From positions 1 through 40,684 of the IMG/VR virus record IMGVR_UViG_3300027985_001840: a stretch of 40,684 nt of DNA; one strand, given 5' to 3'. The notes beneath the pieces were generated by a model that did no database searches, was not told where the DNA came from, and was given only the letters and a program-made list of their open reading frames with translations. This document shows positions 7,403 to 32,001 of this stretch, piece after piece. The position numbers and the translations under genes are program-made. The stretch comes from a virus. Within the stretch, counting starts at the first letter, position 1, and each line of letters starts with the position of its first letter.

Positions 7403-7415
7403 AACGGAGGACGAC

Positions 7416-8729: not shown

Positions 8730-8732
8730 GGT

Positions 8733-9293: not shown

Positions 9294-9301
9294 AATCGCC
9301 T

Positions 9302-9381: not shown

Positions 9382-9389
9382 TTTTTGGA

Positions 9390-9423: not shown

Positions 9424-9437
9424 GATAAGGAGGATGT

Positions 9438-10445: not shown

Positions 10446-11987
10446 ATGTCAAGCATCCAGCAACGAGCCGAACTACAGTCACAAATATGGAAGATAGCTA
10501 ACGATGTCCGTGGATCTGTCGACGGCTGGGATTTCAAGCAATTCGTCCTTGGTACGCTTTTTTATCGATTTATCAGCGAGAACTTCTCTGCCTACTTTGA
10601 AGAGGGCGATGAAACCGTAGTATATGCCGATCTACCCGACTCCGTTATTACCCCGGACCTTAAGGCAGACGCCATCAGGACTAAGGGCTATTTCATTTAT
10701 CCAAGTCAGCTTTTTGTCAATGTGGCGAAAACCGCCAATACCAATGAGAAACTCAACACCGATCTGGCCGGAATATTCACCGCGATCGAAAGCAGCGCCA
10801 ATGGATACCCGTCCGAACTGGACATAAAAGGCCTCTTTGCAGACTTCGACACCACCAGCAATCGCTTGGGGAATACGGTCAAAGAGAAAAGCTCACGGTT
10901 GGCAGCAGTATTGAAAGGGGTGGCAGGGCTTTCGTTCGGTGACTTTCACGATAACCAAATCGATCTTTTCGGCGATGCCTATGAGTTTCTTATTTCCAAC
11001 TACGCGGCCAATGCCGGAAAATCAGGAGGCGAGTTTTTTACCCCGCAGCATGTATCCAAGCTGATCGCGCAGCTTGCCATGCACAACCAAACGTCGGTCA
11101 ACAAAATCTATGACCCCGCATGCGGTTCCGGCTCCCTCCTATTGCAGGCAAAGAAACACTTTGACGCGCATATCATCGAAGACGGTTTTTGGGGGCAGGA
11201 AATTAACCACACAACCTACAACCTGGCCCGCATGAATATGTTTTTGCATAACGTGAATTACGACAAGTTCAATATCGCCTTAGGGAACACCCTTTTGGAT
11301 CCCCATTTCATCAGCGATAAGCCCTTTGATGCGATTGTCTCAAATCCTCCATATTCTGTGAACTGGATCGGAAGCGATGACCCGACGCTTATCAATGATG
11401 ATCGCTTTGCCCCCGCCGGAGTACTGGCGCCCAAGTCGAAAGCGGACTTTGCATTTGTGCTTCACGCCCTGAGTTATCTTTCCGCCAAAGGGCGTGCCGC
11501 GATCGTCTGCTTTCCCGGTATCTTTTACCGAGGTGGTGCCGAACAAAAAATCCGACAATACCTTATCGACAATAACTTTGTCGAGACTGTCATATCTCTT
11601 GCTCCGAACCTTTTTTACGGTACGACCATTGCGGTAAATATTCTGGTATTGTCCAGACACAAGACCGTCAACACTACGCAATTTATCGACGCGAGCGAGC
11701 TTTTCAAGAAAGAAACGAATAACAACATCCTCACCGACGAGCATATTGCCAAAATCATGAAGGCGTTCGACGCCAAGGTAGATATTGAGTGTTTCACCAA
11801 ATGCGTTGATAACGATACCATCGCAAAAAATGATTACAACCTTTCGGTCAGCTCCTATGTCGAGGCAAAAGACACCCGAGAAGTAATTGATATAACCCAG
11901 CTCAATGCCGAGATCAAAACCACCGTATCCAAGATAGACCGCCTCCGTGCAGATATCGATACCATCATCGCGGAGATCGAAGCATGA
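10446..11987 (+). CDS. hsdM: Type IC restriction-modification methyltransferase subunit HsdM
   Basis: N6-adenine DNA methyltransferase subunit of a type I complex (M2S for modification, R2M2S for restriction). 513 residues, N-terminal HsdM_N domain (about 8-150), SAM-binding motif DPACGSGS (223-230) and catalytic NPPY (300-303). Long stretches match what I remember of E. coli EcoR124I HsdM, placing it in the IC family. It shares ATGA with hsdS. GC and codon use differ from the flanking phage genes, consistent with horizontal acquisition of the whole operon. Confidence 0.97.
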
Positions 11988-13186
11988 GTAGTTTACAGTT
12001 TATGGATAAGCTACTGGATGGCGCAGAGGTTGAATTATTGCCACTAGGAGAAGTAACGCAATATGAACAGCCTACTAATTATCTAGTTAATTCTACAAAT
12101 TATAGTGATGAATTCAAAACACCTGTCTTAACTGCTGGTAAAACATTTATTCTTGGATATACAAATGAGGAATACGGTATATATAAGGCATCAGTTAGGC
12201 CAGTTATAATATTTGACGACTTTACAACTGCAAATAAATGGGTTGATTTCGATTTTAAAGCAAAATCATCTGCTATGAAAATGATTTCTTCAAGTAATTT
12301 AAATCGTTACTTAGATAAGTATATATTTTATTGGTTGAATTCTTTACCAAGTGAGTTGGTAGAAGGTGATCATAAGCGTCAGTGGATTGGTAACTATTCA
12401 AATAAGCAGATCCCCATCCCTTGTCCTGATAATCCGAAAAAGTCTCTCGCAATCCAGGCCGAGATTGTCCGCATTCTGGATACTTTCACCGAGCTTACAA
12501 CCGAGCTTACAACCGAGCTTACAGCTCGCAAAAAGCAATACAACTATTACCGGGATCAATTGCTCACCTTCCAAGAGGGGGAGGTGGAATGGAAGCCGCT
12601 GGGGGAGGTGGCAATATTTCGGCGGGGTTCATTTCCTCAACCTTACGGAAAGGATGAATGGTACGATGGAGATGGCGCAAAACCATTTGTCCAGGTGGTA
12701 GATGTTGGTGAAGATATGAGACTCGTACAGAATACGAAGAATAAAATATCGATAAAAGCGCAACCTAAAAGCGTTTTCGTACCTAGTGATACAGTAATCG
12801 TTACTCTTCAGGGTAGTATCGGTCGTGTAGCGATAACTCAATACGACTGCTTTGTAGATCGAACCATAGCGATTTTTGAAAGTTATCAAGTTGACATTAA
12901 CAAGAGATATTTCGCATATCAACTACAAGCAAAATTTGCCATAGAAAAAGAAACTGCTCGTGGAAGCACGATTAAGACAATTACCAAGGAAGAATTCACC
13001 AAGTTTACTATCCCGATTCCATCCCTCGCTGAGCAAGCTCGTATCGTCTCCATCCTCGACAAGTTCGACGTGCTTACTACTTCCATCACCGATGGTTTAC
13101 CCCGTGAAATCGCATTGCGCCAAAAGCAATATGAGTATTACCGCAATATTCTGTTAACCTTCCCGAAGCCAAAGGGGGTAGAATGA
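11984..13186 (+). CDS. hsdS: Type IC specificity subunit HsdS
   Basis: 400-residue subunit that reads the bipartite DNA target. Two target-recognition domains (about 15-150 and 205-345) are separated by a conserved central helix with repeated TTEL units (169-180) and [16 protein letters not shown], matched by a distal copy [16 protein letters not shown] near the C-terminus. This is the circular EcoR124-type design. The TRDs are AT-rich compared with the conserved regions, a usual sign of domain exchange. The target sequence cannot be read from the protein. It overlaps the next gene by ATGA. Confidence 0.95.
12491..12523 (+). repeat. 12-bp tandem repeat in the hsdS central spacer
   Basis: GAGCTTACAACC at 12491-12502 and 12503-12514 and a third partial unit from 12515. 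It encodes TEL-T repeats in the spacer between the two recognition domains. In EcoR124I versus EcoR124/3, two versus three 12-bp units change the spacer length in the DNA target; the same slippage could operate here. Confidence 0.85.
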
Positions 13187-15765
13187 GTGATTCAGATTTA
13201 TATTCACTCAACAAGTGGTTTTTAGAGCGGCCCTATTGGATACAAATTGCAACTACTCGGTTAATGCAGCAGTCTGAACTTACTGATAAAGACATTGCTG
13301 AGTTAACAGTTCTGTGCCAACAGGAAGTTGCCGGTAAGCTGCCGGAAACGACATGGTTGTTTCCTTCAACAACATTCTCTCTGGGTACTGCAGGTACCTT
13401 GCGTTTGTGTTCAATCAGCGATGTTAAAGGTGTAAACGCCCTTGCGCCTAAAAAGCCGCTTGAGTTTGGCAAGGGGAATATAACCATTGTTTATGGCTAC
13501 AATGGGTCAGGAAAATCTGGATACGTCAGACTTTTAAAACACGTATGTGGAGCCCGTGAAATGGGAACCCTTCACCGTAATGTTTATAAGCCAAGTTCCT
13601 CTGTACAAAAAGCCTGTATTTCCTATGAGCGGGACGGTATATCGAAGACACTAACCTGGAACGGACAGGGTGTCTGTGATGACTTGAAAAGTGTTGATAT
13701 TTTCGATACATCGTTTGGCAAGATTTTTGTTAGCAGCGAAGATGAGGTAAGCTATGAGCCGCCGATATTATCACTTTTCAGCTCGCTTATCATTGTATGT
13801 GAAAAGGTTGCTTTAGCCCTGGATAATGAAGCAAATAGGTACCAATCAAAAAAGCCGAATATTCCAGCAGACAAGAAAGAAGTTCCTGAAGGTGTTTGGT
13901 ACGAGAATGTCAGCGCCAGGACCACCACCCAAGATATCGAAAAGTTTTGCAAATTTAGCAACAACGACGAAACTGAGTTACAGACACTACAGAAGCGTCT
14001 TGCTGAAGAGTCACCAGCAGATAAAGCAAAACAACTGAGAAGCCAGAAGCACCATATCGATACTTTGGTTCGGGATACTCAAAAGTATCTGGAACAATTA
14101 TCAGACGAGAATTGCCGGAGGATTATTGCTGCTAAGAAAAAGTTGATCTTAAAGAAAACAGTGGCAGATGTAGCCGCCGAAAAGGTATTTTCCGACAGCG
14201 AGTTGGATGGTATCGGATCCGATATATGGAAAGAGCTTTGGGATGCTGCTCGGAACTATTCCGTATCAGTTGCATATAAAGAAGTCGAGTACCCTAATAT
14301 CACTGATGGTTCTCGTTGTGTCCTGTGCCATCAGGTCTTGTCACAAGAGGCAAAAGAGCGGCTAACATCTTTCGAAAACTTCGTGAAGGGAGAATTGCAA
14401 AAGTCATCAGCTGAAGCAGCCAATGAATACAAAACCGTCAGTGAAACTATTGAATCGCTCCCATCATCGGAGACGCTGAAGACACGAATTGATGCGGCGG
14501 GAATTACACAGGATGACTTTTCGACTCAGGTGATGGATTTCTTTGTTCAACTACAGGCAAGAATAGATCTGCTACCTGATATTAATTCTGAAGAAACAAT
14601 CCCGAGTCCTTTGTCAGTGCCAAGATGGATCGAAGAAGCCAACATCCAGTCGGGAAAACTCGGTGTACTCGCAGTAAAATATGACGAAGATGCCAAAAGT
14701 GACAATCGCGAAGAGATCAAGAAAAAAATCAACAGCTTACAGGCCAGAAAGTGGTTATCTGAAAACCGGGCTGCTATTGATGAAGAAATATCACGTTTGA
14801 AACTACTTGACCAAATTCAGGAAGCCAAGAAATCGACAAACACCAAAGCTTTATCACAAAAGAAAGGGGAGATGGCAGAGGCCTTGATCACAGATGCATT
14901 CGTGCAACGATTCAACATGGAGCTAAAAGCACTCGGTGCGGCTCAAGTAAAGGTCGAAATGGTGAAATCAAAGGTTTCTAAGGGACGTGTTCTTCATAAG
15001 CTCCAGCTTCAAGGGGCCTCGCAGAATGGACTTGCTGATGTCCTGAGTGAAGGGGAAAACAGAATCGTGTCCATTGCGGCGTTCTTGGCCGATGTTACGG
15101 GTAAGTGCTACCATGCGCCGTTTGTCTTTGACGATCCAATATCTTCGCTTGACCAAAGCTATGAGGAATCTGTGGTTCAAAGGTTGATCGAGTTGTCTCA
15201 GGATAAACAGGTTATTGTTTTTACTCACCGCCTGTCATTGCTGGGGACTGTCAGACATTATGCTGAGAAGAAGTCCATTAAGCCGGAAATAGTGAGCATT
15301 CGTGCAACAGACTGGGGGACAGGAGAACCAGCTCCCATTCCAGTATCGCAGAGTGATATCAAAACAGCATTGAACGTACTAATAAATCAGCGGGCTCAGG
15401 ATGTAAATAAGGCAGACGAGAACGGCAATTTTGAATATTCAGAAATCCTGATAAAGTCGATATGTAGCGACTTCAGGACGCTGATAGAGCGCTCTATCGA
15501 AAATGATCTCCTATGCGGTGTTGTTCAGAGATTTCAACGACCGGTCTGCACACTAAAACTCAAGGATCTGGCTAAATTAAAAGCGGATGATTGCTCTGTT
15601 CTTGATTCGCTCATGACCAAGTACTCCGGGTTTGAACACTCGCAACCACTTGAAGCGCCGGTGGAACTGCCGAAATCGGAAGAACTTCTTGCTGATATGA
15701 TAAAGCTAAGAGATTGGCGTGAAGAATACCTTAAGAGGACTCCAGAAAAATGTTTGGTGTTATGA
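13183..15765 (+). CDS. RloC-like ABC ATPase with zinc hook, putative anticodon nuclease
   Basis: 860-residue SMC/Rad50-like ATPase. Walker A is GYNGSGKS (105-112), a central coiled coil carries the zinc-hook CVLC (C379, C382), the ABC signature is LSEGEN (621-626), Walker B is FDDPISSLD (about 649-657) and an H-loop follows (FTHRLS). RloC proteins have this layout plus a C-terminal anticodon nuclease. Here the C-terminus has R765-x3-E769 and H819 in a VVQRF ... FEHSQ context, matching the R/E/H type of PrrC/RloC, though the spacing to H is longer than in PrrC. Known RloC excises the wobble nucleotide and is linked to DNA damage. It is inserted between hsdS and prrC with ATGA overlaps on both sides. 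Nuclease function is inferred. Confidence 0.8.
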   Translation: MSDSDLYSLNKWFLERPYWIQIATTRLMQQSELTDKDIAELTVLCQQEVAGKLPETTWLFPSTTFSLGTAGTLRLCSISDVKGVNALAPKKPLEFGKGNITIVYGYNGSGKSGYVRLLKHVCGAREMGTLHRNVYKPSSSVQKACISYERDGISKTLTWNGQGVCDDLKSVDIFDTSFGKIFVSSEDEVSYEPPILSLFSSLIIVCEKVALALDNEANRYQSKKPNIPADKKEVPEGVWYENVSARTTTQDIEKFCKFSNNDETELQTLQKRLAEESPADKAKQLRSQKHHIDTLVRDTQKYLEQLSDENCRRIIAAKKKLILKKTVADVAAEKVFSDSELDGIGSDIWKELWDAARNYSVSVAYKEVEYPNITDGSRCVLCHQVLSQEAKERLTSFENFVKGELQKSSAEAANEYKTVSETIESLPSSETLKTRIDAAGITQDDFSTQVMDFFVQLQARIDLLPDINSEETIPSPLSVPRWIEEANIQSGKLGVLAVKYDEDAKSDNREEIKKKINSLQARKWLSENRAAIDEEISRLKLLDQIQEAKKSTNTKALSQKKGEMAEALITDAFVQRFNMELKALGAAQVKVEMVKSKVSKGRVLHKLQLQGASQNGLADVLSEGENRIVSIAAFLADVTGKCYHAPFVFDDPISSLDQSYEESVVQRLIELSQDKQVIVFTHRLSLLGTVRHYAEKKSIKPEIVSIRATDWGTGEPAPIPVSQSDIKTALNVLINQRAQDVNKADENGNFEYSEILIKSICSDFRTLIERSIENDLLCGVVQRFQRPVCTLKLKDLAKLKADDCSVLDSLMTKYSGFEHSQPLEAPVELPKSEELLADMIKLRDWREEYLKRTPEKCLVL

Positions 15766-15932
15766 ATAAACTTAATAAACAAGTTCGTAAAGTCATTATC
15801 TTGGATATGATGAATCACATTATTGTAATCATGTATGAAACCTTGTTGCATAAAATCAAAATACTGCTGAAACAATATTTGGGCCGCCACAATCTGCTTG
15901 TTGCTTTCTCCAGAAATGAGGGAACAGTTTAA
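15762..15932 (+). CDS. Small basic ORF coupled between the RloC-like gene and prrC
   Basis: 56-residue ORF whose ATG overlaps the RloC-like stop codon (ATGA) and whose TAA ends one base before the ATG of prrC. The product is basic and amphipathic (N-terminal NKLNKQVRK, then long I/L/V/M stretches), with no family I know. The tight fit copies the ATGA coupling used by the other genes of this operon, which supports translation. The ORF could also be chance open frame in AT-rich spacer DNA; it contains the prrC ribosome-binding site (GAGGGAA, 15918-15924). Confidence 0.4.
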   Translation: MNKLNKQVRKVIILDMMNHIIVIMYETLLHKIKILLKQYLGRHNLLVAFSRNEGTV

Positions 15933-15933
15933 T

Positions 15934-17058
15934 ATGGGAAAAACTTTACAGGAAATTTCACAACAACTCAAAGAGTCCAATAACAAAGTTCAGTTAATCT
16001 ATGCCTTCAATGGTATAGGTAAAACCCGTTTGTCTCGAGAGTTCAGGCTCCTGGTTGCACCAAAACATACCGATGAGTTACCTGATTCGGAGGAAGAAGC
16101 CGGAGTAAAAGTAATATACTATAACGCATTTACTGAAGACTTATTTTATTGGGATAATGACTTAGATAATGATATAGAACCAAAGCTAAAAATCCAGCCT
16201 AATAGTTTCACGGAATGGGTACTAAACAGGCAAGGTCAAGATCAAAAAATAATAGCTAACTTTCAGCATTATACCAATTCACATATAACACCGAAATTTA
16301 GTCCGGATTTTTCAGAGGTAACTTTTTCATTAACACGTGGTAATGATGAAAGTATCGAAAATATTAAACTCTCCAAAGGTGAAGAAAGTAACTTAATTTG
16401 GTGCGTTTTCTATTCCTTGATGGAACAAATCATTTACGAATTGAATATTGATGAAATCGCTGATCGTTCAACAAGTGATTTTAATCAATTAAAATACATT
16501 TTTATTGATGACCCTGTCAGCTCATTGGACGAAAACCACCTAATAGAGTTAGCAGTAAATATTGCAGGGTTGATAAAAACAAGTAAATCGCAAAAACTGA
16601 ATTTCATTATCTCAACTCATAACCCATTATTTTATAATGTATTATACAATGAAACCGGAGTAAGATCGGGGTGTTTGCTAAGCCGGAATGATGATGGAAC
16701 TTTTGCACTTGAGGAAAAGCAAGGAGACTCGAATAAAAGCTTTTCATATCATTTATATTTATTAGAAACTCTTGAAAATGCAATAAAACACAACCAAATT
16801 CAAAAATACCATTTCACTCTTTTGCGGAATTTATATGAAAAAACAGCACAATTTTTAGGCTATCCCAGATGGTCCGAACTATTGCCCGATGACAAGAAGA
16901 CCTACATGAATCGTATTATACAATTCACAAGTCATTCTACTTTATCCAACGAAGTAGCTGCGGTGCCTACAGAACCGGAGAAGCAAATCGTAAAATTCTT
17001 ACTGAATCATCTGAAAACAAAATATAGCTTTTGGCAGGAGGCAATAATAAATGAGTGA
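15934..17058 (+). CDS. prrC: PrrC anticodon nuclease
   Basis: 374-residue tRNA-Lys anticodon nuclease kept silent by the type IC R-M complex and released when a phage inhibitor (Stp in T4) or DNA degradation products disturb it. Near-continuous resemblance to E. coli PrrC: P-loop FNGIGKT (25-31), [12 protein letters not shown], signature LSKGEES, Walker [13 protein letters not shown], and the nuclease triad R298, E302, H334, whose spacings (4 and 32) equal R320/E324/H356 of PrrC. I start at ATG 15934 (9 nt after GAGGGAA) because it gives the MGKTL start expected for PrrC. It overlaps hsdR by 8 nt. Gene order hsdM-hsdS-prrC-hsdR equals the E. coli prr locus apart from the inserted RloC-like gene. 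Confidence 0.95.
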
Positions 17059-20000
17059 TTATAAAACCATAGCCGAATCAAAAAACTTTATCGTGCTTGA
17101 CAAGTACGTCAAGGAATCACAGGCTTGCGACAGCTATCAAACAGAAGGTGATCTTGAACGCGAACTAATTGAAGATCTACAAAACCAGGGTTACGAATTT
17201 GTACCTACTATAAACAATCCCGAAGCGATGTTGTCCAATATCCGCATACAGCTTCAAACCCTTAACAATATGAGTTTTTCCAATAGTGAATGGTCCCGAT
17301 TTGTCGAAAGCTATCTGGATAAACCCAGCGATACCATCATAGATAAAACCCGAAAAATACACGATGACTATATCTATGATTTTGTTTTTGACGATGGACA
17401 TATACAGAACATTTACCTGGTGGACAAGAAAAACCTCTCCCGTAACAAAGTACAGGTCATTAAACAGTTTGAGCAAACCGGCAATCAGGTCAACCGCTAT
17501 GACGTCACGATTTTGGTAAATGGCTTGCCCTTGGTACAGATAGAGCTCAAAAAACGCGGAGTCGCCATTCGTGAAGCCTTCAATCAAGTACATCGCTATA
17601 GCAAGGAGAGTTTTAACTCCGAGCAATCCCTGTATAAGTATCTCCAGCTTTTTGTAATATCCAACGGAACCGACAGTCGCTACTTTGCCAATACTACCAA
17701 ACGTGACAAGAACAGCTTTGACTTCACCATGAACTGGGCGAAGTCGGATAACAGCCTCATAAAAGACCTGAAAGATTTTACCGCTACCTTTTTTCAGAAG
17801 AAAACGCTTCTGGAAGTCCTGATCCGCTATTCGGTCTTTGATACAAACAACACCCTTCTCGTCATGCGACCCTATCAAATCGCGGCAACTGAGCGATTGT
17901 ATTGGAAAATTATCAGCTCGTATCAGGCAAAAAACTGGTCAAAGCCCGAAAGCGGCGGGTATGTATGGCATACGACTGGATCGGGGAAGACGCTTACGAG
18001 CTTCAAGGCGGCTCGCCTTGCGACCGAACTCGATTTCATTGATAAGGTTTTTTTCGTCGTCGATCGCAAGGATCTCGACTTCCAGACCATGAAAGAGTAT
18101 CAACGGTTTTCCCCTGATAGCGTCAATGGTTCCGACAACACAGCCGGACTGAAACGCAATATCGAGAAGGACGATAACCGGATCATCGTTACCACCATTC
18201 AGAAACTCAATAACCTGATGAAGACCGAAGACAGCCTACCGATTTACCAAAAACAGGTCGTGTTTATCTTTGATGAATGTCATCGGTCGCAATTCGGCGA
18301 AGCGCAAAAGAACCTTAAAAAGAAATTCAAGTATTTCTATCAGTTCGGTTTTACCGGCACACCCATATTCACCGAGAATGCCGTGGGCGCGGAAACCACG
18401 CAGTCCGTCTTTGGAACCGAACTGCACTCTTATGTAATAACCGACGCGATCCGCGACGAAAAGGTATTGAAATTTAAGGTTGACTATAACGATGTCCGCC
18501 CGCATTTTAAAGCGCTGGAATGTGAGCAAGACGAGCAAAAACTCAATGCAGCCGAAGCAAAGCAGGCGTTCTTGCATCCCGAGCGCATCCGTGAAATTTC
18601 GCAGTATATCCTGGACAAGTACAAGCAAAAGACCCATCGACTCCTTGCCAACGGGACCGGATTTAACGCGATGTTCGCGGTAAGCAGCGTAGACGCTGCT
18701 AAAGTATATTATGAGACCTTCCGCTCTTTGCAAAAAAGCAAGGACAACCCGCTTCGAATCGCCACCATTTTCTCCTTTGCCGCGAACGAAGACCAAAACG
18801 CCATCGGGGAAATAACCGATGAAAGCCTTGAAACGTCGGCAATGGACTCCAGCGCGAAAGAGTTCTTGAATTCCGCGATAAACGATTATAATGCCCTGTT
18901 CAAGACCAACTTCAGCACCGAGAGCAATGGTTTTCAGAATTACTACCGTGATCTTTCCTCACGCGTTAAGAAACAGGAAATTGACTTGCTTATCGTCGTG
19001 GGAATGTTCCTTACGGGTTTTGACGCGCCTACGCTGAACACGCTTTTTGTCGATAAAAACCTTCGTTTTCATGGCCTGATTCAGGCGTATTCCCGGACCA
19101 ACCGCATATATGACGCAACGAAAACATTCGGTAACATCGTCACATTCAGGGACCTGGAACAGGCTACCATTGACGCCATTACGCTCTTTGGCGATAAAAA
19201 CACGCGTAATGTCGTTCTGGAAAAGAGCTATGAAGAGTACATGAAAGGCTTTACCGATATCGCAAGCGGCGAAGCCCGGCGTGGATACCTGGAGGTGGTG
19301 AAAGAACTACAAACCAGATTCCCCAATCCCGATGAAATCGTAACGGAAAAAGACAAAAAAGCTTTTACCAAACTGTTTGGCGAATATCTGCGCGTGGAAA
19401 GCATACTTCAGAATTATGATGAGTTCGCGGGATTACAGGCATTGCAGCACCTTGATACGACGAATCCCGAGGCAGTTGAGGAGTTCAAGGCTAAGTACTA
19501 CTTGAACGACGAAGATATTGCCGCAATGCGGGAAATCAAAGTACCCCCAGCTCGAATGATTCAGGATTACCGGTCGACCTATAATGATATTCGAGATTGG
19601 CTCCGGAGAGAGAGTAACGCGAAACAGAGAGACGAGTCCACGATTGATTGGTCTGATGTCGTTTTCGAAGTTGATCTCTTAAAATCGCAAGAAATCAATC
19701 TCGATTATATCCTCGAGTTGATTTTCGAGAATAACAAAAAGCGCAAAGACAAGACCGCCTTGGTTGAGGATGTTCGGAGACTGATCCGTTCGAGCATCGG
19801 CAACCGCGCAAAGGAAAGTTTGCTCGTCGATTTCATCAATCATACGAATCTTGACGCCATTCAAGATAAAGCGCATGTCATTGACGCCTTTTTTGCATAT
19901 GCCCAGGCGGAACAACAACGCGAAGTCAACGAGTTAATTACCGAAGAAAAACTGAATGAGGAAGCTGCAAGGCGGTATATTACCGTTTCATTGAAACGGG

Positions 20001-20149
20001 AGTACGCCAGTGAAAACGGAACCGAACTCAATGCGATCCTGCCAAAAATGAGTCGGCTGAATCCTCAATATTTAACTATGAAACATACTATTTTCCAGAA
20101 AATTGCAAATTTTGTTGAGAAGTTTAAGGGCGTTGGCGGGAAGATATAA
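17051..20149 (+). CDS. hsdR: Type IC restriction subunit HsdR
   Basis: 1032-residue translocase-endonuclease subunit. PD-(D/E)XK nuclease residues D151, E165 and K167 are at the same numbers as in EcoR124I. The SF2 helicase core has Walker A GSGKT (310-314) and DECH (408-411), then FTGTPIF and the [10 protein letters not shown] motif VI. The C-terminal helical domain ending KFKGVGGKI, which binds HsdM, is intact. Very close match to EcoR124I over the whole length as I recall it. All catalytic residues are present, so restriction should be active. Confidence 0.97.
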
Positions 20150-20258: not shown

Positions 20259-22552
20259 TTAGGATTCCCAATGTGCCTGAATATAACTTACCGTTTCTTC
20301 AGGATCGAGGCTTTGTATTGAAGCCGCTGCTCTGATAAAAAATAACTTCTCATTATCCTTTGAAACAAATATTGGTTTCTTAGCTCTTTCGACAGATACA
20401 ATGCAAATTTCGATATCAGATATTTTCTCGACTGATGACTTGATATATGAGAATCCAAATTTCTGGAAATATTTTATTAATAAACTATTAAGATAAAGAA
20501 TGAAACCGTCCTTGTTCTTTTTAGATAATGTTTGGTAATCATTGCTTAATCCAAGTAATCCAGAGTCATCATCTACGCCAATATATAGTATACCACCATC
20601 TGTGTTAAGAAAGCCTGCTATTGATTTTATTACCATAAACTCAAGTTCTTTGTTTAATTGTTTTGTTTTATAATCGTAACGAAGACTTGATTTGAATTCT
20701 GTTTTACCGGATTCTCCATCCTGGATAATTTGACCGTGATCAATCTTGTCTTCTTTGCTTGATGTATTTGTGTCCTTTTCGAGTAATTGTAGGTATACTA
20801 TTTTGTTCTTTTCGATTTTCTTAAAAAGTGTACTCCTGTCAGAAATAATGCTGTAGACGCTTGCCTTAACTTCACCTTCAGATGCTAATTGATTAACAAT
20901 ATCACTTAATTTTAAAATACGAGTGTCCTGATTCGATAACATTTCTATGATTCTATTAACTGTTTTAACTTGCTTTGACTGACCTGAATTTGATGGCAAC
21001 TTCTTTTCTGGATCAATGAGATAGTAGACACGGTTATTCTCTTTTTTCTTAACAAGCATAGTAATTGAAGTAAATCGATTATAGCAGTTGCCTTCTTTCC
21101 AATTAATTCCAGAAGTGATGAGCTCTTGCTGGAGTTCCTTACTAGTATATTGTTTGTTTGGATTCTTCTCCGCAATATGCAATAATATATCTTCAAGTTT
21201 TTCACGTGAGACACATTCACGAGTATGTTCAACAGGTATGGTATAATGCCGGTTCCATTCTTTTAATGCGAATACTCCGCGGTCGACATTGATAAACTTA
21301 TCGCGATGTTGGTTTATTATTGAACTGATTGAAGATTCTTTAACGTCATGTCTAAAACCTGAAATATATGAAAAAAGGTCTCTAACAGTACATTCATGAT
21401 TATAGTGATAAAAGGCTTTCTCAATTAATTCTACGATTGATGAAGAATCATTATTCCAGACAGTTAAACCCCATTTACCTGTCTTTCCAATTGAGGAGAA
21501 TAGCGGGGATGAAACAAGTTGATTTTTCATCGATGTACACGTTGCCTGACTATCCATATCTGACTTTGTCAAGCGATGACGTATTTCTCTCCAAATATCA
21601 GTTGCATGCATTACTTCGTTTTTTTCATACAGAACTCGATAAGCACAATCTTTTAATGATCGTAATTTATGAAAAGAAATCTGAAAAAAAACTTTTTCAG
21701 CATTTTCTATTTGTTCAACATAGGGTAGGATTCCAATTACTATTTCTATTAACTCTTTTGTAATTTTCTTTTTCTTGCGCAGCGCAATCACTATCTCAAT
21801 AAAGGGGACAGGAATTACCATGTCTTGTAAATACGTTATTAATGTATTACAAGTTAGTACAAAATCCTGATATGTATATGAGTTGTTAACAATGAAGACT
21901 TGAGTACCATTAAAATCATAATCACTTACATTTCCTACTGCTAAAAGTAACAAAATTATACCATTCTGTGTATCAACATTAGGCATGCCATTTGCAGTAA
22001 AAACAGATGATATATAATCACTCGTTATGATTTTCTGATTCTGAATATTGGCTTTGATTTCAGTAAAGGTATCAATAAGTTTCTTATCCAGTCTACAATA
22101 TGGGTTCTTTATTACTGAGCCCTCTAGTAAAGATGATAGTTTTTGAAGGTGTTTGGTTTCAATTTGTTGTACTCTTTGACGACTTATATCATAGAACAAG
22201 CCAATATCTTCGAATGTATATCGTTTATTTCCATTTAATGAGAAACGTTTTTCGATAATGTCTTTTGCCTTTCGATCGTTTAATAAAAGAAAATAGTCGG
22301 TAACAAATTGGTTAAAGTCATTGATTAGTAAATCGTGTTTTGTTATCGGCAAGATGGGTTCGCATTCCTTAAGATATGCTTCTTTTACATTTTGAGGGGT
22401 TGATACAATTTGCTTTCGAAATTGAAGGAGATCCTCCTCCGAGGCCTGCCCTACCGATTCTATCTTCTTGAAATCAGAAACTTTTATTCGTAAAACATCG
22501 TCTACAGTTCTACATTCTGCTAAATTCAGTTTCTTAAACAACCTACTAGGAA
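20259..22552 (-). pseudogene. C-terminal 88% of an IS-split alphaCTD/sigma4/HTH/AlbA_2 protein
   Basis: The coding frame continues from 22552 down to 20259 and encodes, in order: an RNA polymerase alpha-CTD-like helix-hairpin-helix (LNLAECRTVDDVLRI ... IESVG), a sigma-70 region-4-like helix-turn-helix (YTFEDIGLFYDISRQRVQQI), several winged-helix/HARE-like segments (e.g. ATDIWREIRHRL; YTSKELQQELITSG), and a C-terminal AlbA_2/Schlafen-type domain (SGKTEFKSSLRYD, FLNTDGGILYIGVDDDSGLLG). AlbA_2 modules occur in many defence proteins. Joined to 24991-25294 and without the IS, the frame gives about 865 residues. An ORF reading into the IS end could make a truncated 773-residue form. It is convergent to hsdR. 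Confidence 0.85.
22544..22552. repeat. Left copy of the IS target-site duplication
   Basis: TACTAGGAA, identical to 24982-24990 on the other side of the element. Confidence 0.85.
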
Positions 22553-22601
22553 TGTATTCCGTCAAGTGAAAATACCCCAAAAAAGCGTGTAAAAATACCC
22601 A

Positions 22602-23381
22602 TCAGGCGACGGGTACTTTTACCCGGTTTTTTTGTCGCATGAGCGCATGCTTCATGCGGTAACTCTCTCCTTCGAACAACACGATATAACCATGGTGAGC
22701 AAGCCGGTCGATCATGGCGGCAGCCATCTGGTCGTCGGTCATGATCGATCCCCACTTCGAGAACTCAAGATTCGTCGTAAGGATCAAGCTCCGCTGCTCA
22801 TAACAATCGGAGATGACTCTGAATAGCAATTGTGCTCCTTCGCGGCTAACAGGGACATAGCCCCATTCGTCTATGACGAGCAACTCCGCCTTTAAAATAC
22901 TCCGAAGTAGTTTCTCAAGCGTACCTGCGGCGAGCGCCTCGGAAAGAAGGACGACGAGCTGGGCTGCCGTGAAGAACTTGACCCGAAAACCGAGCTCGCA
23001 GGATCGCACGCCCAACGCAATCGCGAGATGGGTCTTGCCGGTTCCGACCGGTCCGTACAGGACGAGGTTTTTCTTCTCGGTAACGAACGAGCATGATTCA
23101 AGGTCTTTCCTGCTCACCAGAGGCGGAAACGTGCAGGATCCATCCTCGTATGTCTCAAGCGTTTTATAGACGGGGAACGCGGCCTCCCGAAGAAGCCGTG
23201 CCCGTCGAGTCTCCTCACGGTTTGCAATCTCGGCCTCAAGCACGCGAAGCAGAAATTTCTCGTTTATCGCGTTCGCTTCTTCCTCGCAGATACCGATTGC
23301 CGTTTGACTGAACGTCACCTTTTTCAGCATGAGCGAAATCGCCTTTCGCGTATCGGAACGGTTGGTTCGTTGCTGTCTCAT
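22602..23381 (-). CDS. istB: IS21 transposition helper ATPase IstB
   Basis: 259-residue AAA+ DnaC/DnaA-like ATPase that assists IstA and selects target DNA. Walker A is GPVGTGKT, Walker B is LLVIDEWGY, and sensor-type LILTTNLEFSKW follows. Length is normal for IstB. It overlaps istA by ATGA (23378-23381), so the two are translationally coupled. Confidence 0.95.
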   Translation of the reverse strand: MRQQRTNRSDTRKAISLMLKKVTFSQTAIGICEEEANAINEKFLLRVLEAEIANREETRRARLLREAAFPVYKTLETYEDGSCTFPPLVSRKDLESCSFVTEKKNLVLYGPVGTGKTHLAIALGVRSCELGFRVKFFTAAQLVVLLSEALAAGTLEKLLRSILKAELLVIDEWGYVPVSREGAQLLFRVISDCYEQRSLILTTNLEFSKWGSIMTDDQMAAAMIDRLAHHGYIVLFEGESYRMKHALMRQKNRVKVPVA

Positions 23382-24847
23382 AGTACGCTCCCTTCGCCAT
23401 GAATGAGAGCCGAGTCGTATACGGCGAGATTCGGACCCGAGTCGGGAATCTCGCCGAAGATATCGTACGCCTTCCGGGCGGCGAGCGCCTGCAGGCTGAA
23501 CTCATCGTCGGTTCCGCGCTTCACAGCTTCCTCAAGAGCCGACAGCGCTGCGTCAAAACCATAGTGCTCGGCGTTTTTGCCGAGAGACCGCAACAGTTCG
23601 CTTCGTCGGGACTGGGGCATTTCGTCGATGATGGACCGGCTATCGCCGTCCAGTTTGTTCCTGAGTTCGCAGTTTTTCCACGCGCCGCTTTTCTTGACGA
23701 GCATGTCGATACTCGTCAGGTAATCGGTCGAGTCCGACCGGCATGAGCCGTAAACCCTTGCGTGGCATGCGATTGTCTCTCCCGACTCGGAATAGACGGT
23801 TATTGCGTGGGCGCCGAGCCCGACGACAATGTTCGCGTATGCGTTTTCCGGTCGCGTCGAATACCAGTGATTCGAGTCGGTACAGAATTTGCCATACCCG
23901 TCTGTCCTGTATTTGACCAAGCGCTCGACCCGAAACGGTTTCGCGGGAAGCGGCGCGAGAGCCGCCTTGTCCTGCTTGAAAAGCTCGGCGATCGGTTTGC
24001 CCTTCTTGTAATGTTCCCGTTCAAAGTCCCGTTCGCATGTCGACAGTAATTCGTTGTTCCACGAAATCATATCCGTTACCGCAGGGATCGGAACGAACAG
24101 ATTCCGGCGAATATAGCCGACCTTGTTTTCCACGTTCCCTTTTTCCTGTCCGCTTTCCGGATTGCAGAAGGTTACTGAAAAACCATAATGGCACTTGAAC
24201 CGGAGAAACAGTTCGGAATACAGAACCTGATCGCGAACGCGTCGACCCACGCCCGTCGCGTTGTCGAAGACGATCCGCAGGGGAACGCCGCCGATGTGAT
24301 TGAATATGTCGAGCAGTCCCTGACAGACGCATTCCGCGGTCTCTCCGCCAAAGCATTGCGTGTACGCCGCGTTGCTGAACGGAAAGCTCAAAACAAAGTA
24401 TTTCCGGCTTTTCTTCTCGCCGTTTTCGAGTACGTCGGCTTCCCCAAAATCGGCTTGAGCCTCTCCTGGGAACCAGACGAGTTCGAGCGCTCCATCGGCG
24501 GCGACGCGGGCTTTTCTGGCCGTTTTCAGATACCGCTGAACGATGGAGTACGAGCAGTCAAAGTCGGGATGCAGTTCCGTGAGCCGGACGAATACCCGTT
24601 GCGCGGTATGCCTTTGCTTGTATCTCATGCGGCGATCTTCGTCGAGCCAGAGGTCTATCTCGCTTTTCCAGCGATCGAGTTTTGAGCCTCGCTGTGTTCG
24701 TTCAGAAAGTTCGTCGTTGAAGCTTTCCTTTTGCATGTAAGCGGACACCGTTTTTCGGTTGATTCCGAGTCGTCGTGAGATCTCTACTGGTCCGTACCCC
24801 TGGCGTTGCAGTTCCTTCACTTCGTCAATCTGGTTCATGGTCAGCAT
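23378..24847 (-). CDS. istA: IS21 transposase IstA
   Basis: 489-residue DDE transposase. An N-terminal helix-turn-helix (VKELQRQGYGPVEISRRLGINRKTV, about 7-31) binds the terminal repeats, and an RNase H-like core carries the first Asp in QADFGEAD, the second in IVFDNATG and the Glu in GQEKGNVENKVGY. The C-terminal Mu-type beta region is present. Full length for the family, with no frameshift seen. Confidence 0.95.
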   Translation of the reverse strand: MLTMNQIDEVKELQRQGYGPVEISRRLGINRKTVSAYMQKESFNDELSERTQRGSKLDRWKSEIDLWLDEDRRMRYKQRHTAQRVFVRLTELHPDFDCSYSIVQRYLKTARKARVAADGALELVWFPGEAQADFGEADVLENGEKKSRKYFVLSFPFSNAAYTQCFGGETAECVCQGLLDIFNHIGGVPLRIVFDNATGVGRRVRDQVLYSELFLRFKCHYGFSVTFCNPESGQEKGNVENKVGYIRRNLFVPIPAVTDMISWNNELLSTCERDFEREHYKKGKPIAELFKQDKAALAPLPAKPFRVERLVKYRTDGYGKFCTDSNHWYSTRPENAYANIVVGLGAHAITVYSESGETIACHARVYGSCRSDSTDYLTSIDMLVKKSGAWKNCELRNKLDGDSRSIIDEMPQSRRSELLRSLGKNAEHYGFDAALSALEEAVKRGTDDEFSLQALAARKAYDIFGEIPDSGPNLAVYDSALIHGEGSVL

Positions 24848-24981
24848 TCCTTTCCTCCCCGTAGAACGATTCTACAGGGAGGTAAACCGCCAAAATACCC
24901 ACGCTTTTTCGGGGTATTTTTGACGCTTTTTTGGTCCATTCCAGTTTGCTTTTTCTGGGTACTTTCAGGTTACGCTAAACA

Positions 24982-24990
24982 TACTAGGAA
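24982..24990. repeat. Right copy of the IS target-site duplication
   Basis: TACTAGGAA, matching 22544-22552. Deleting one copy and the IS joins codons ATT CCT AGT to AGG TTG TTT and restores the AlbA_2 gene frame. Confidence 0.85.
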
Positions 24991-25294
24991 TAAGGGATGT
25001 CAGATATTTTATTTCGATTGACCTGATTTCGTGGGGAATAGCAGAATACTCTTCATGAACATGATTGTTATTATACAGCAGCTTTTCGGGTTCATTATCA
25101 ATCATGAATTTTAAGTTTCGGTATAACTCAATTGTTTTTGCTCCGATTGATTTAACCTTTGAGAAATCTTCGATACTAAATGCTTTGATGTCCTGTATAT
25201 TTCGTAAACCCAACATGTTGAGTTTATTCATTAAAATATTGGGTATCTGTGTTTTGATCTCTGACAGTTCAATCTGGCTTAGTTCTTTATCCAT
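24982..25294 (-). pseudogene. N-terminal part of the IS-split AlbA_2 protein
   Basis: First 104 codons of the interrupted gene, from ATG 25294. It contains an alpha-CTD-like helix-hairpin-helix (LGLRNIQDIKAFSIEDFSKVKSIGAKTIELYRNLK, given here only as the span of about residues 27-61), which resembles the second copy behind the IS. The frame then runs five codons (MFSVT) into the IS and stops, giving a 109-residue fragment. No clear Shine-Dalgarno is seen before the ATG. A HhH domain alone might still bind DNA or polymerase, but loss of function is likelier. Confidence 0.8.
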
Positions 25295-25597: not shown

Positions 25598-25625
25598 TTG
25601 ACATGTTTAATGAGAATGCTATAAT
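25598..25625 (+). promoter_or_regulatory. Strong sigma70-type promoter
   Basis: TTGACA (25598-25603), 16-bp spacer, TATAAT (25620-25625), with TGC before the -10 (extended -10). Transcription would start near 25632 and read the four cargo genes to the right. It is the best housekeeping promoter in the window. Confidence 0.85.
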
Positions 25626-26460: not shown

Positions 26461-27183
26461 TTGGAGCACGAAATAAAACCGATTCTTAATGTGTATTGTG
26501 ATGAAAGCTGTCATATCTTGAATGACCATCAGAAGTATATGGGTTTTGGTTCGGTTTCTGCACCCGTTGAAACAGTTCGTTCTCATTCGCTGGCAATACG
26601 ACACATAAAAGAGCAATTTCATTGTACTAGTGAAATGAAATGGACGAAAGTATCACCTAAAAATATCCCATTCTATACTGCAATCATTGAGTATTTTTTT
26701 AATAATACAGATTTGAGCTTTCGTGCTGTCGTTGTGCATGACAAGGATGAATTACGACATGAAACCTTCAATCAGGGGAGTCACGATCTTTTTTATTACA
26801 AAATGTACTATTACTTAATCCGTGGGCTTACGTATATCCACGATTCTGATACTTTTCATGTATATCTGGACATCAAGGATACCAAAGGTTCTCTAAAGGT
26901 AAAAAAGCTGAAGGAAGTAATTTCAAATTCGCTTCATGATTTTGAACAGCGCCGAGTTCCCCGTATACAAGTGATCCGGTCTGATGAAGCGGAACTGATG
27001 CAATTGACTGATTTCCTTCTAGGTTCGATTATGTATGCAACAAGAGGGTTGGATACTAGTTCTGCAAAGCAGGAGATAACCCGGTTGGTTCAAGAACGTG
27101 CAGGATATGCCCTGACAAAATCTACAGAACCATGGGCTGAAAAATTCAATCTTTTTCATTTCTGGCCAAGAAAGGAGGCCTGA
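26461..27183 (+). CDS. DUF3800 family protein
   Basis: 240-residue putative RNase H-fold nuclease. The N-terminal VYCDESCH (D-E motif), the central VYLDIKDTKG and the late QLTDFLLGSIMYA segment are the hallmark positions of DUF3800, a family common in mobile elements and defence islands with no settled function. Start is TTG 26461, 9 nt after GGGAG (26447-26451). It lies one base before the next gene, suggesting joint work of the two products. Confidence 0.8.
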   Translation: MEHEIKPILNVYCDESCHILNDHQKYMGFGSVSAPVETVRSHSLAIRHIKEQFHCTSEMKWTKVSPKNIPFYTAIIEYFFNNTDLSFRAVVVHDKDELRHETFNQGSHDLFYYKMYYYLIRGLTYIHDSDTFHVYLDIKDTKGSLKVKKLKEVISNSLHDFEQRRVPRIQVIRSDEAELMQLTDFLLGSIMYATRGLDTSSAKQEITRLVQERAGYALTKSTEPWAEKFNLFHFWPRKEA

Positions 27184-27184: not shown

Positions 27185-27721
27185 ATGGAGAGCTCTGACC
27201 AATCCGAAGAAGCATTAACAATCAGTTTGCCAGAAAAACTCTATCTTGATGACGCAATATCATTTGATGAGCTTGTGAAGCAACTTTTCCAGATCTTTTT
27301 CAAAGATTTTATAGAAACGAAGCCTTATTTCCGGGCAAAACCGGTTGTTTTTGATAACAGCCACAGGGAAAGTTCCTATCCAGAGGGTTTTTGGCATATT
27401 ATTACTCGCACTGATTATATACGGAATGGTGAGCGACTTTTGGATTACAAGAGAGCCAAAAGGCTTCCCTGGCTTAAGTCGATGATTCAACAATGGAATC
27501 ATCCAGCACTTCTTTGTTGGTGTTCACTTGAATTTGACAAGAGTGCAGGGCATGAAATCGAAAAATATTATATCTGGTATGTTGAAGGTAAGTATCTTAT
27601 TGTTCTGAAAGAAAAACCCGGGAAATACTTCCTGGCAACGGCATTTTACGTTACTACCGAACGGGATGAAGCACGGTATCGGGAAAAATATGATAAAGGT
27701 AGGAAAGACTTTAAAAAATAA
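27185..27721 (+). CDS. Possible BECR-fold nuclease/toxin-like protein
   Basis: 178-residue protein. The central region (GFWHIITRTDYIRNGERLLDY ... LPWLKSMIQ) and the later GKYLIVLKEKPGKYFLATAFYVT have the H/R-then-beta-strand look of phage barnase-EndoU-colicinE5/D-RelE-like (BECR) nucleases, with a charged C-terminal tail. This is pattern recall, not a firm match. It could equally be an unrelated DUF. It follows DUF3800 with one base between them. Confidence 0.45.
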   Translation: MESSDQSEEALTISLPEKLYLDDAISFDELVKQLFQIFFKDFIETKPYFRAKPVVFDNSHRESSYPEGFWHIITRTDYIRNGERLLDYKRAKRLPWLKSMIQQWNHPALLCWCSLEFDKSAGHEIEKYYIWYVEGKYLIVLKEKPGKYFLATAFYVTTERDEARYREKYDKGRKDFKK

Positions 27722-27879
27722 AGGGAATCGGTTGTTACCCGACCCCTCAGCTCCTTCTACACTAGGTAGATGAGTATCACTACAATAAATATAGGGCAAC
27801 CTATGTTTACTGTCAAGTAAACAATCGGACAGAACCCTTCATAAATACAGTAAAATTATAGGGATATGTTTTTTCACTT

Positions 27880-27922
27880 TTTCTACAAATTATTCATTTC
27901 TGTCGAAAAAATAGACCATCCG
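27880..27922 (+). promoter_or_regulatory. 43-bp dyad operator-like repeat, copy 3
   Basis: Left half TTTCTACAA (27880-27888, one mismatch to copies 1 and 2), 11-bp spacer, then CTGTCGAAA (27900-27908) and AAATAGACCATCCG. The right 22 bp are almost identical to copies 1 and 2. It stands 45 bp before the first tail gene and marks the return to phage DNA after the cargo. The gap before it (27722-27879) is AT-rich with no gene. Confidence 0.6.
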
Positions 27923-27966
27923 CCCACTAATCCCCTCTGATACCGTATGTCACATGGAGGCCTGCC

Positions 27967-28737
27967 ATGTACATACTCGGCTCAGAATGCACGATAACCC
28001 TCTATCGGAACGACGAACTTACTGCCATCCCCTATACCCTTGAGACCCTCCGAGAGGAACCCCAATGGGCCGAACTCGACCCACTCGTCGGATACATCAT
28101 GCCGATCGGCCTCGTCCGCGGCGGATTTGCCGTCCTGGGCTGCGTCGTAACCCGCGTATGCGGAACATCTCTCTTGGCAATAGCCGGACTCCTCCGAACC
28201 GGACCTGATCAGACCTTCATCCTGTACCTCAATAGAATCGTTGAAAAACGTATCTACCGGAACCTCATCATGACCGGTTGGGAAGTCCGTGCAGACCGCG
28301 ACGAAGCCCTCTACGTCAGACTCGACATGGAAGGCGAGGAAGCCGCCGACTGGGATTACCAGACCCCCGACCTTCCCTGGGAACAGAACGAAACCCTATC
28401 TTTCTTCGACAACGACATCGTCCTTGACGGCAAAGCATCAACCAACATATACCGCTTCTCCTTGACCCGTCTCTTCGGCGACGCCATCTCAACCGTCCTC
28501 CAGCTCCATTACCCCCTGAAAGACGGAGACGAACTCAACGACTGCCGAAGTATTACCCTCGTCACTTTGACCTTCGGCGACCGTCTCCGCATTAGCCTGA
28601 CGAGCCTTATCCTACTTTCCTTCAACGCAAACACCGACAACGCCGAGGAAATCCTCGTCGTGAGGCGCTTCCGCGTTGACGGAGAATGCCTCATAACCGT
28701 GCGAAATGCCAAGGGCGAGTGGGTAACCCCTGAATGA
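27967..28737 (+). CDS. Phage tail-module protein, unknown function
   Basis: 256-residue protein with repeated beta-strand-rich segments and no motif I recognise. GGAGG precedes ATG 27967, and it overlaps the next gene by ATGA. Position directly before the hub-like protein suggests a distal tail or tail-tip component. GC and codon use return to the phage pattern. Confidence 0.6.
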   Translation: MYILGSECTITLYRNDELTAIPYTLETLREEPQWAELDPLVGYIMPIGLVRGGFAVLGCVVTRVCGTSLLAIAGLLRTGPDQTFILYLNRIVEKRIYRNLIMTGWEVRADRDEALYVRLDMEGEEAADWDYQTPDLPWEQNETLSFFDNDIVLDGKASTNIYRFSLTRLFGDAISTVLQLHYPLKDGDELNDCRSITLVTLTFGDRLRISLTSLILLSFNANTDNAEEILVVRRFRVDGECLITVRNAKGEWVTPE

Positions 28738-30272: not shown

Positions 30273-30273
30273 A

Positions 30274-30585
30274 GTGAACGAAGATGACCGGAAACTGATC
30301 GCCGAGACGGTCTCCGTAATGAACGGGCTCCGATCCGACATGCAGGAATTCAGGGGAGAGATGCGTGAGTTCAAGCAGAATACGCTTTTGCGGATTACCG
30401 CGCTCGAAAGCGACCAGGTGGAATGTCAGAAGAACCCTACCGTCTGCGCGACCGCCCGGCTCGTCGAAGGGCACCTCTCGGGGCACAAGGGCGGGAAAAG
30501 CTTCGCCGTCTCGATTTGGGCGGTATGCGTTTCAACCGTGATGTGCGTGTTCACGATCGTGATGGCGTTCACGAAAAGGAGTTAA
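30274..30585 (+). CDS. XhlA-like membrane protein of the lysis module
   Basis: 103 residues starting at GTG 30274, 6 nt after GAGGAGG (30261-30267). An N-terminal coiled-coil region (about 5-50) leads to a C-terminal transmembrane helix (VSIWAVCVSTVMCVFTIVMAF) and a positive tail. This is the topology of XhlA-type haemolysin/holin-associated proteins. It opens the lysis cassette. Confidence 0.65.
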   Translation: MNEDDRKLIAETVSVMNGLRSDMQEFRGEMREFKQNTLLRITALESDQVECQKNPTVCATARLVEGHLSGHKGGKSFAVSIWAVCVSTVMCVFTIVMAFTKRS

Positions 30586-30591
30586 GTAAGC

Positions 30592-31170
30592 GTGATCAAC
30601 TGGAAAAAGATATTCGAGATCGAAGAAAAACAATTCGGTGAAATGGGAGAACGCGAGAAGTACGTGTACTTTCTCCTCCTTCAGTACCGAAGCCCGTATC
30701 TCTGGGGAAAAGAGTTGCCATCCGGCGCCGATTGCTCGGGAGCCGTGTGCCTCGCGATCGCCGCCGCTACGGGCAAGATTATCAGGACAACCGCGGACGG
30801 CCTTTACAAAAAATACTTCACGGTGAAAAACCCGGAGATCGATGACATCCAAGCGGTGTTCTTCGTGACGCAGTATGACCGGCAACACGGTGATCGTCTG
30901 GCGAAGCGCGGCGAGGTCGTCCACGTCGCCGGGGTGATCCATGAAGGCGTCGTAATGAACGTCGTGGAACCGAAGGCAGACATAAGGCTCACGAGTTCGA
31001 TGCGCCATTCGTACTCGCTTATGGGATGCGAGATGGTGATTCGGGGACTGGACCGGAAGGCGCTCGACGAGGGAGAGAAAGCGGGTGAGGACCTTTTCGG
31101 GCTCGATCCCGAGTTCGGGGCGTTCGTAGTGGCCGCGAATGCGGTGAAGGAGAAACCGGAGATATGGTAA
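30592..31170 (+). CDS. NlpC/P60 family endolysin-type peptidase
   Basis: 192-residue cysteine peptidase predicted to cut peptidoglycan stem peptides at lysis. Catalytic C48 lies in PSGADCSGAVC, and the catalytic His is in VVHVAGVIHEG (H111 or H117), in the usual order. No signal peptide, as expected for a holin-dependent endolysin. GTG start at 30592 with AAGGAG 9 nt upstream. It overlaps the holin-like gene by 7 nt. Confidence 0.85.
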   Translation: MINWKKIFEIEEKQFGEMGEREKYVYFLLLQYRSPYLWGKELPSGADCSGAVCLAIAAATGKIIRTTADGLYKKYFTVKNPEIDDIQAVFFVTQYDRQHGDRLAKRGEVVHVAGVIHEGVVMNVVEPKADIRLTSSMRHSYSLMGCEMVIRGLDRKALDEGEKAGEDLFGLDPEFGAFVVAANAVKEKPEIW

Positions 31171-31991: not shown

Positions 31992-32001
31992 GGAGACCGG
32001 T

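What the first reader, a model, noticed from the sequence alone, without database searches (positions are those of the whole stretch)
20259..25294. Unusual protein: alpha-CTD-like, sigma4-like, winged helix and AlbA_2 in one chain
The restored protein joins two RpoA-CTD-like helix-hairpin-helix units and a region resembling sigma-70 region 4 (YTFEDIGLFYDISRQRVQQI) to HARE-like winged helices and a C-terminal AlbA_2 domain. It sits beside a tRNA-targeting R-M operon. A protein built from transcription-machinery parts could sense or block phage promoters or RNA polymerase. I do not know a described system with this order.
Basis: partly seen in the sequence, partly recalled or inferred. Interest (0 to 1): 0.75.

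Follow-up and report, generated by a model that had tools for sequence, protein, structure and literature searches.

The report
DNA-reading Schlafen-type protein, broken by transposon
Next to a bacterial restriction system lies a gene, cut in two by a transposon, for a protein that joins DNA- and promoter-reading modules to a Schlafen-type RNA-cutting domain; an intact relative also sits beside a restriction system, and the same RNA-cutting domain is fused directly to restriction enzymes in other microbes, which suggests a back-up weapon against phages.

Summary
On the minus strand, 25294-20259 encodes HHH-HHH-sigma4-HARE/winged helices-AlbA_2, split by a 2.4-kb IS21 element (22553-24981) with a perfect 9-bp target duplication. 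Sigma4, HARE and AlbA_2 all pass Pfam cut-offs. The HHH units are real, but calling them alpha-CTD specifically is not secure: by profile comparison they lie closer to NusA-type HHH. An intact full-length orthologue (884 aa, 38% identity) exists in a Spirochaetales MAG and lies 255 bp downstream of a different hsdM-hsdS-hsdR; its AlphaFold model has six winged helices. No other full-length relative was found.

The AlbA_2 keeps the three carboxylates of the SLFN13 RNase site. In 80 homologues it always ends the protein and swaps partners: GmrSD (15), HsdR (4), Eco57I-type methylase (2), membrane segments and others. Distant HHH-sigma4 proteins without AlbA_2 lie in Dnd and CxC-ATPase operons. 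The best reading is a restriction-linked DNA/promoter reader with a Schlafen-type RNase output, inactive in this copy. RNA polymerase sensing is possible but untested. New variant of a known kind; mechanism confidence about 0.45.

The parts
24991..25294 (-). N-terminal piece of the split gene (ATG at 25294); the ORF runs on into the IS to 24965
   Evidence: 36% identity over 96 aa (E 7e-17) to residues 21-116 of the intact orthologue P0002
25106..25249 (-). HHH unit 1 (alpha-CTD / NusA-AR type helix-hairpin-helix)
   Evidence: (orthologue model, pLDDT about 85; Foldseek to alpha-CTD 3gfk_B)
22553..24981 (.). IS21-family element, 2429 bp, inserted in the gene; imperfect terminal inverted repeats TGT...ACA
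23378..24847 (-). istA transposase
22602..23381 (-). istB ATPase
   Evidence: PF01695 E 1.5e-65
22544..22552 (.). target-site duplication TACTAGGAA, left copy
24982..24990 (.). target-site duplication TACTAGGAA, right copy
20259..22553 (-). C-terminal piece of the split gene (P0001, 764 aa)
22404..22553 (-). HHH unit 2
22137..22271 (-). sigma-70 region 4 (4.1 plus the 4.2 HTH)
22158..22184 (-). sigma 4.2 recognition helix SRQRVQQIE (TRERIRQIE in the orthologue and in sigma70)
20784..22085 (-). region matching six predicted winged helices of the orthologue
   Evidence: (orthologue residues 272-709), alignment
21456..21662 (-). HARE-HTH winged helix
   Evidence: PF05066 E 9.7e-7
20259..20714 (-). 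AlbA_2 (Schlafen) domain; E614, E619, D662 of P0001 match the SLFN13 catalytic E205/E210/D248
   Evidence: SLFN13 residues from PMC5862951
10446..11987 (+). hsdM of the neighbouring type I R-M operon
11984..13186 (+). hsdS
13183..15765 (+). 860-aa AAA_13/SMC-like ATPase (PADLOC PDC-S06) inside the R-M operon
15898..17058 (+). prrC anticodon nuclease
17051..20149 (+). hsdR (converges with the finding's gene, 109 bp between stops)

Best explanation
The locus holds an accessory gene of a type I restriction-modification system whose product is a long DNA reader with a Schlafen-type RNase at its end. Two HHH domains, a sigma region-4 helix-turn-helix and about six winged helices (one HARE) would lie along DNA, reading promoter-like (-35) and possibly base-modified sequence. 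The C-terminal single-lobe AlbA_2 domain would be the output: when the sensor meets foreign or unprotected DNA, or when the restriction enzyme is inhibited, it cuts RNA (tRNA or RNA near the bound site) and stops the infection. It would thus be a second RNA-targeting back-up beside PrrC. In this copy an IS21 insertion between HHH1 and HHH2 has broken the gene. Shown: domain order, IS insertion, intact orthologue beside another type I system, conserved catalytic residues, AlbA_2 fused to restriction proteins elsewhere. Inferred: RNase activity, DNA target, trigger, defence role.
For: AlbA_2 matches Schlafen RNases by profile (SLFN14 2.6e-10, SLFN13 4.1e-10, SLFN11 1.5e-9) and by fold (SAMD9 DBD 3.9e-5, SLFN11/SLFN13 probability 1.0), with both catalytic glutamates invariant in 80 homologues and the aspartate kept in at least 90%. 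The intact orthologue follows hsdM-hsdS-hsdR, and its HsdM/HsdR belong to a different subfamily from the window's (HsdM 29%, HsdR 26% identity), so the pairing recurs on unrelated systems. The same AlbA_2 ends HsdR proteins in 4 loci, GmrSD in 15 and Eco57I-type methylases in 2; HsdR fusions fall in two separate places of the tree. Relatives with HHH-sigma4 but no AlbA_2 sit in Dnd operons (2) and CxC-ATPase operons (3).
Against: No experiment. Only two full-length members, so neighbourhood statistics are thin. About half of the C-terminal AlbA_2 homologues sit behind membrane segments and a few behind response-regulator or solute-binding domains, so the module is not only a defence effector. 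It is single-lobed, whereas SLFN13 cleaves tRNA with a two-lobe core. In L009 a 255-bp gap separates the gene from hsdR, and in the window it is convergent, so co-transcription is not shown. The sigma4 model is low confidence.
Confidence: 0.45

Rival explanations
1. A transcriptional regulator: HHH, sigma4 and winged helices bind the promoter of the restriction operon (or of phage genes) and control it; AlbA_2 only helps nucleic-acid binding.
Against: The AlbA_2 carboxylates are kept in all or nearly all homologues, which pure binding would not need; the same AlbA_2 is joined to HsdR and GmrSD nucleases.
Confidence: 0.25
2. One reading: an RNA polymerase sensor or blocker that uses alpha-CTD and sigma4 mimicry to detect or stop phage transcription.
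For: Sigma4 is close to primary sigma region 4.2 (1tlh_B E 2.2e-6), including TRERIRQIE in the orthologue; HARE is related to the RNA polymerase delta subunit (TIGR04567, 29 bits, below cut-off); Foldseek links HHH1 to alpha-CTD.
Against: No sigma region 2 or 3; HHH units score nearer NusA-type HHH than true alpha-CTD; DNA binding alone explains the same parts; no RNA polymerase contact is shown.
Confidence: 0.15
3. A modification-dependent sensor or restriction factor: winged helices/HARE read modified bases (type IV-like) and AlbA_2 works with the nearby nuclease on DNA.
For: HARE domains are proposed readers of modified DNA (PMC11037411, PMC10853773); among soluble partners AlbA_2 is most often fused to GmrSD, the type IV restriction family (15 of 80); relatives lie beside Dnd and methylase genes.
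Against: No DNA nuclease domain in the chain; AlbA_2 belongs with RNases.
Confidence: 0.1

Closest known systems
Schlafen/SLFN13-type RNases (Pfam SLFN_AlbA_2; SLFN11, SLFN13, SLFN14, SAMD9 AlbA_2)
   Same: AlbA_2 fold and E...E...D catalytic residues
   Different: Single lobe at the C-terminus instead of the two-lobe N-terminal core; joined to DNA-reading modules
HsdR-AlbA_2, GmrSD-AlbA_2 and Eco57I-AlbA_2 proteins found here (L041, L056, L063, L068; L053, L069, L084; L062, L078)
   Same: Same C-terminal AlbA_2 subfamily, linked to restriction systems
   Different: AlbA_2 sits on the restriction enzyme itself rather than on an HHH-sigma4-winged-helix protein; AlbA_2 lineages are separate in the tree
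HHH-sigma4 'sigma factor-like HTH DNA-binding proteins' of Dnd and CxC-ATPase operons (WP_166195114.1, WP_245362195.1, WP_063612567.1)
   Same: HHH unit(s) directly before sigma4; in the Dnd type weak hints of further winged helices; beside DNA-modification genes
   Different: No AlbA_2; detectable similarity confined to the HHH-sigma4 stretch
HARE-HTH proteins combining RNA polymerase alpha and sigma features (Aravind and Iyer 2012, from memory, not readable here)
   Same: HARE joined to alpha/sigma-like modules
   Different: AlbA_2 end not remembered for them
PrrC, the anticodon nuclease of type I R-M operons
   Same: RNA-targeting back-up linked to hsd genes (by inference here)
   Different: Unrelated protein; both occur side by side in this window
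MzaA (MZA anti-phage system sigma-like protein)
   Same: C-terminal sigma4 helix-turn-helix in a defence protein
   Different: 36.9 bits against a cut-off of 800; only sigma4 is shared

Membership tests
SLFN_AlbA_2 (PF04326) | profile match above curated cut-off | tested here: met
   56 bits against 25.3
Schlafen RNase | three catalytic carboxylates (SLFN13 E205, E210, D248) | tested here: met
   E614, E619, D662 of P0001 align (PMC5862951)
Schlafen RNase | two-lobe SLFN core in one chain | tested here: not met
   one AlbA_2 stretch only, 155 aa
Schlafen RNase | RNA cleavage | not testable with these tools
   needs biochemistry
Sigma-70 factor | region 4 | tested here: met
   30 bits against 24.1
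Sigma-70 factor | region 2 (-10 recognition, core binding) | tested here: not met
   no Sigma70_r2 match in window pieces or orthologue
RNA polymerase alpha-CTD (PF03118) | profile match above cut-off | tested here: not met
   orthologue 13.4 bits against 23.8; window pieces no match; met only in relatives such as P0006, 41.2 bits
RNA polymerase alpha-CTD (PF03118) | alpha-CTD fold | tested here: inconclusive
   Foldseek 3gfk_B probability 1.00, TM 0.66 but E 0.13; hhalign prefers NusA-type HHH; HHH2 model matches generic HHH
HARE-HTH (PF05066) | profile match above cut-off | tested here: met
   29.5 bits against 25.9; orthologue 20.3, below
MzaA / MZA system | NCBIfam equivalog cut-off | tested here: not met
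   36.9 of 800 bits
Type I R-M accessory effector (PrrC-like role) | linkage to hsd genes in more than one genome | tested here: met
   window and L009, different hsd subfamilies; n = 2
Type I R-M accessory effector (PrrC-like role) | activation by failure or inhibition of restriction | not testable with these tools
   needs phage experiments

The most novel reading that the evidence does not exclude
A class of anti-phage effectors in which a Schlafen-type RNase is addressed by transcription-machinery modules: the protein sits on promoters or RNA polymerase of incoming DNA and cuts RNA there when restriction has failed, coupling DNA self/non-self recognition to RNA destruction.
Probability: 0.15. 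Interest if true: 0.85.

Novelty: new variant of a known kind. Interest (0 to 1): 0.55.

Why it matters
If right, it gives the transcription-like HHH-sigma4 proteins seen beside DNA-modification systems a testable role. It also shows one Schlafen-type RNase module plugged into type I, IIG-like and type IV restriction proteins, so the RNA-cutting arm seen in PrrC would be a recurrent partner of restriction rather than an oddity. The intact orthologue makes this directly testable.

Tried and rejected
Five IMG/VR scans with the protein, its parts or alignments, the phage collection and samples of 393 Spirochaetota, 395 Bacteroidota and 398 Pseudomonadota genomes (the last two had no positive control) gave no further full-length relative; the Spirochaetota hits other than L009 were ordinary sigma factors. 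HARE-bearing proteins in 388 Pseudomonadota had no match to this family. The E. faecium plasmid hit downstream of hsdR looked like a third linkage but is a true sigma factor with regions 2-4. A Brasilonema plasmid hit is also a true sigma fused to an ATPase. 'Alpha-CTD' as a specific label was rejected after the control comparison. The window's HHH2-sigma4 model was too poor to use (mean pLDDT 59). Rfam and tRNA scans of the window were empty.

Full report
What is there. The window is a linear 40.7-kb IMG/VR record. Its phage part (integrase, terminase, portal, protease, major head protein, head-tail adaptor, primase) has GC near 0.55, while the stretch from about 10.4 to 27 kb falls to 0.33-0.47 apart from the IS and holds hsdM, hsdS, an 860-aa AAA ATPase, prrC and hsdR on the plus strand, then the finding's gene on the minus strand. 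The gene is one reading frame cut by an IS21 element (istA, istB) of 2429 bp with inverted ends and a perfect 9-bp duplication. No other stop or frameshift interrupts the two pieces, so the break looks recent. In this copy no full protein can be made.

Is the architecture real? Sigma70_r4, HARE-HTH and SLFN_AlbA_2 all exceed Pfam's curated cut-offs in the large piece. A degenerate-pattern genome scan returned one relative that matches residues 4-764 at 38% identity (E 5e-161), an unbroken 884-aa protein in Spirochaetales MAG SZUA-475. The small piece aligns to its N-terminus (E 7e-17). The order therefore exists as one natural protein and is not an artefact of joining.

The HHH units. Two copies are seen, alike to each other. 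Pfam's alpha-CTD model gives only 13 bits on the orthologue. Foldseek on the orthologue model (HHH1 pLDDT about 85) finds B. subtilis alpha-CTD at probability 1.00. As a control I took true RpoA-CTD, NusA-type and ligase-type HHH sequences from genomes and compared profiles: family against NusA-type 95.7%, alpha-CTD 73.6%, ligase 62.4% (small uncalibrated profiles; the NusA and ligase labels are mine, from sequence). The safe statement is an HHH of the alpha-CTD/NusA-repeat class.

Sigma4. It is nearest to region 4 of primary sigma factors (1tlh_B, E 2.2e-6). The -35 reading helix TRERIRQIE of E. coli sigma70 is identical in the orthologue and in the Rhizobium and Dnd relatives; the window has SRQRVQQIE. 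By established sigma70 knowledge these positions contact the -35 element, so the window copy has changed two of them (E585Q, R588Q in E. coli numbering). Regions 2 and 3 are absent, so it is not a sigma factor.

Middle. The AlphaFold model of the orthologue (mean pLDDT 69, 29-row alignment) shows six winged-helix units between 272 and 709; the third is HARE. Relative placement is not reliable (pTM 0.34).

AlbA_2. A profile of 33 homologues hits SLFN14, SLFN13 and SLFN11 structures at 2.6e-10 to 1.5e-9, aligning to the lobe with the active site. The SLFN13 catalytic residues E205, E210, D248 (PMC5862951) match E614, E619, D662. In 80 homologues the two glutamates are invariant and the aspartate at least 90% conserved. 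The domain always lies at the extreme C-terminus (0-17 residues left), and what precedes it varies: GmrSD_N in 15, HsdR in 4, Eco57I-type methylase in 2, and one each with HsdS-like and sigma4, four each with receiver, solute-binding and bPH_2 domains, and about 44 with predicted membrane segments (crude hydropathy, which overlaps some of the named classes). HsdR-AlbA_2 in L041, L056 and L063 belongs to hsd systems related to the one beside the orthologue (L056: HsdR 41%, HsdM 57% identity). In the tree, window and L009 are sisters (100/98) and HsdR fusions fall in two separate places, so recruitment to restriction looks repeated.

Surroundings of relatives. L009: hsdM 2227-3942, hsdS 3939-5312, hsdR 5309-8383, then the gene at 8638, same strand. 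Its HsdM and HsdR are only 29% and 26% identical to the window's, so this is not one inherited cluster. Searching plasmids with the part before AlbA_2 gave non-sigma HHH-sigma4 proteins in Rhizobium (two, CxC-ATPase system), Pontibrevibacter and Ruegeria (dnd operon with restriction enzyme); a further step gave Aurantiacibacter (methylase, helicase, CxC-type ATPase; here alpha-CTD is clear, 1.3e-10) and Acidiphilium (no modification genes nearby). Five of six such loci lie in DNA-modification operons; some are near-duplicates, so about three of four independent cases.

Mechanism. I favour a restriction-linked DNA reader with an RNase output. The shown steps are anatomy, catalytic residues, recurrent link to restriction. 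The inferred steps are RNA cleavage, the DNA it reads and the trigger. The RNA polymerase idea cannot be excluded: sigma4 and HHH could touch polymerase, and HARE is related to the delta subunit. But DNA reading explains the same parts with fewer assumptions. A regulator without RNase activity is the main rival.

Novelty. Searches of the open library found no paper with Schlafen and HsdR together and none for AlbA_2 with sigma4 or HARE; the Dnd and BREX surveys mention HARE, sigma-like HTH and Schlafen separately. Aravind and Iyer 2012 (not held) described, as I remember, HARE proteins with alpha and sigma features. A 2025 preprint on bacterial Schlafens in phage defence is cited in PMC12839542. 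Hence a new variant of a known kind.

Noticed in passing
L041:1528-4995, L056:6022-9483, L063:6022-9483, L068:5620-9504: Type I HsdR subunits with a Schlafen AlbA_2 domain fused at the C-terminus, in Patescibacteria and an Acidimicrobiia MAG; found in no paper searched.
   Followed up: partly
L062:5386-9483, L078:5308-9486: Eco57I/MmeI-type methylases of about 1380 aa ending in the same AlbA_2 domain.
   Followed up: partly
L053, L069, L084, L003 and others: GmrSD (DUF262) type IV restriction proteins ending in AlbA_2 are common: 15 of 80 homologues.
   Followed up: partly
L063:3020-4687: Between hsdM and hsdS of an hsd operon lies a 553-aa ORF that combines methylase and specificity remnants with AlbA_2.
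   Followed up: no
L112:3080-10658 (E. faecium plasmid pW142): hsdR is followed at once by a gene for a true sigma factor (regions 2-4) and a helicase gene, an odd partner for a type I system.
   Followed up: partly
L107:5068-11937 (Brasilonema plasmid): A 2289-aa protein begins as a complete sigma-70 factor and continues into an AAA ATPase.
   Followed up: no
window 13183-15765: 860-aa AAA_13 ATPase (PADLOC candidate PDC-S06, 1054 bits) between hsdS and prrC, so the operon carries two ATPase add-ons.
   Followed up: no
window 25598-25625 (+): Perfect sigma-70 promoter match (TTGACA-16-TATAAT, 12 of 12, TG before the second hexamer) facing a 250-bp stretch without a long ORF; no Rfam match.
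   Followed up: partly
window 50-10327 and 27185-36065: Head and packaging genes with only one weak tail hit, primase, and a defence cargo inserted after the head-tail adaptor; could be a prophage fragment or a capsid-forming satellite. TerL is nearest to Leptospira phages (33%), hinting at a spirochaete host.
   Followed up: partly
window 26461-27183: DUF3800 protein next to the broken gene.
   Followed up: no
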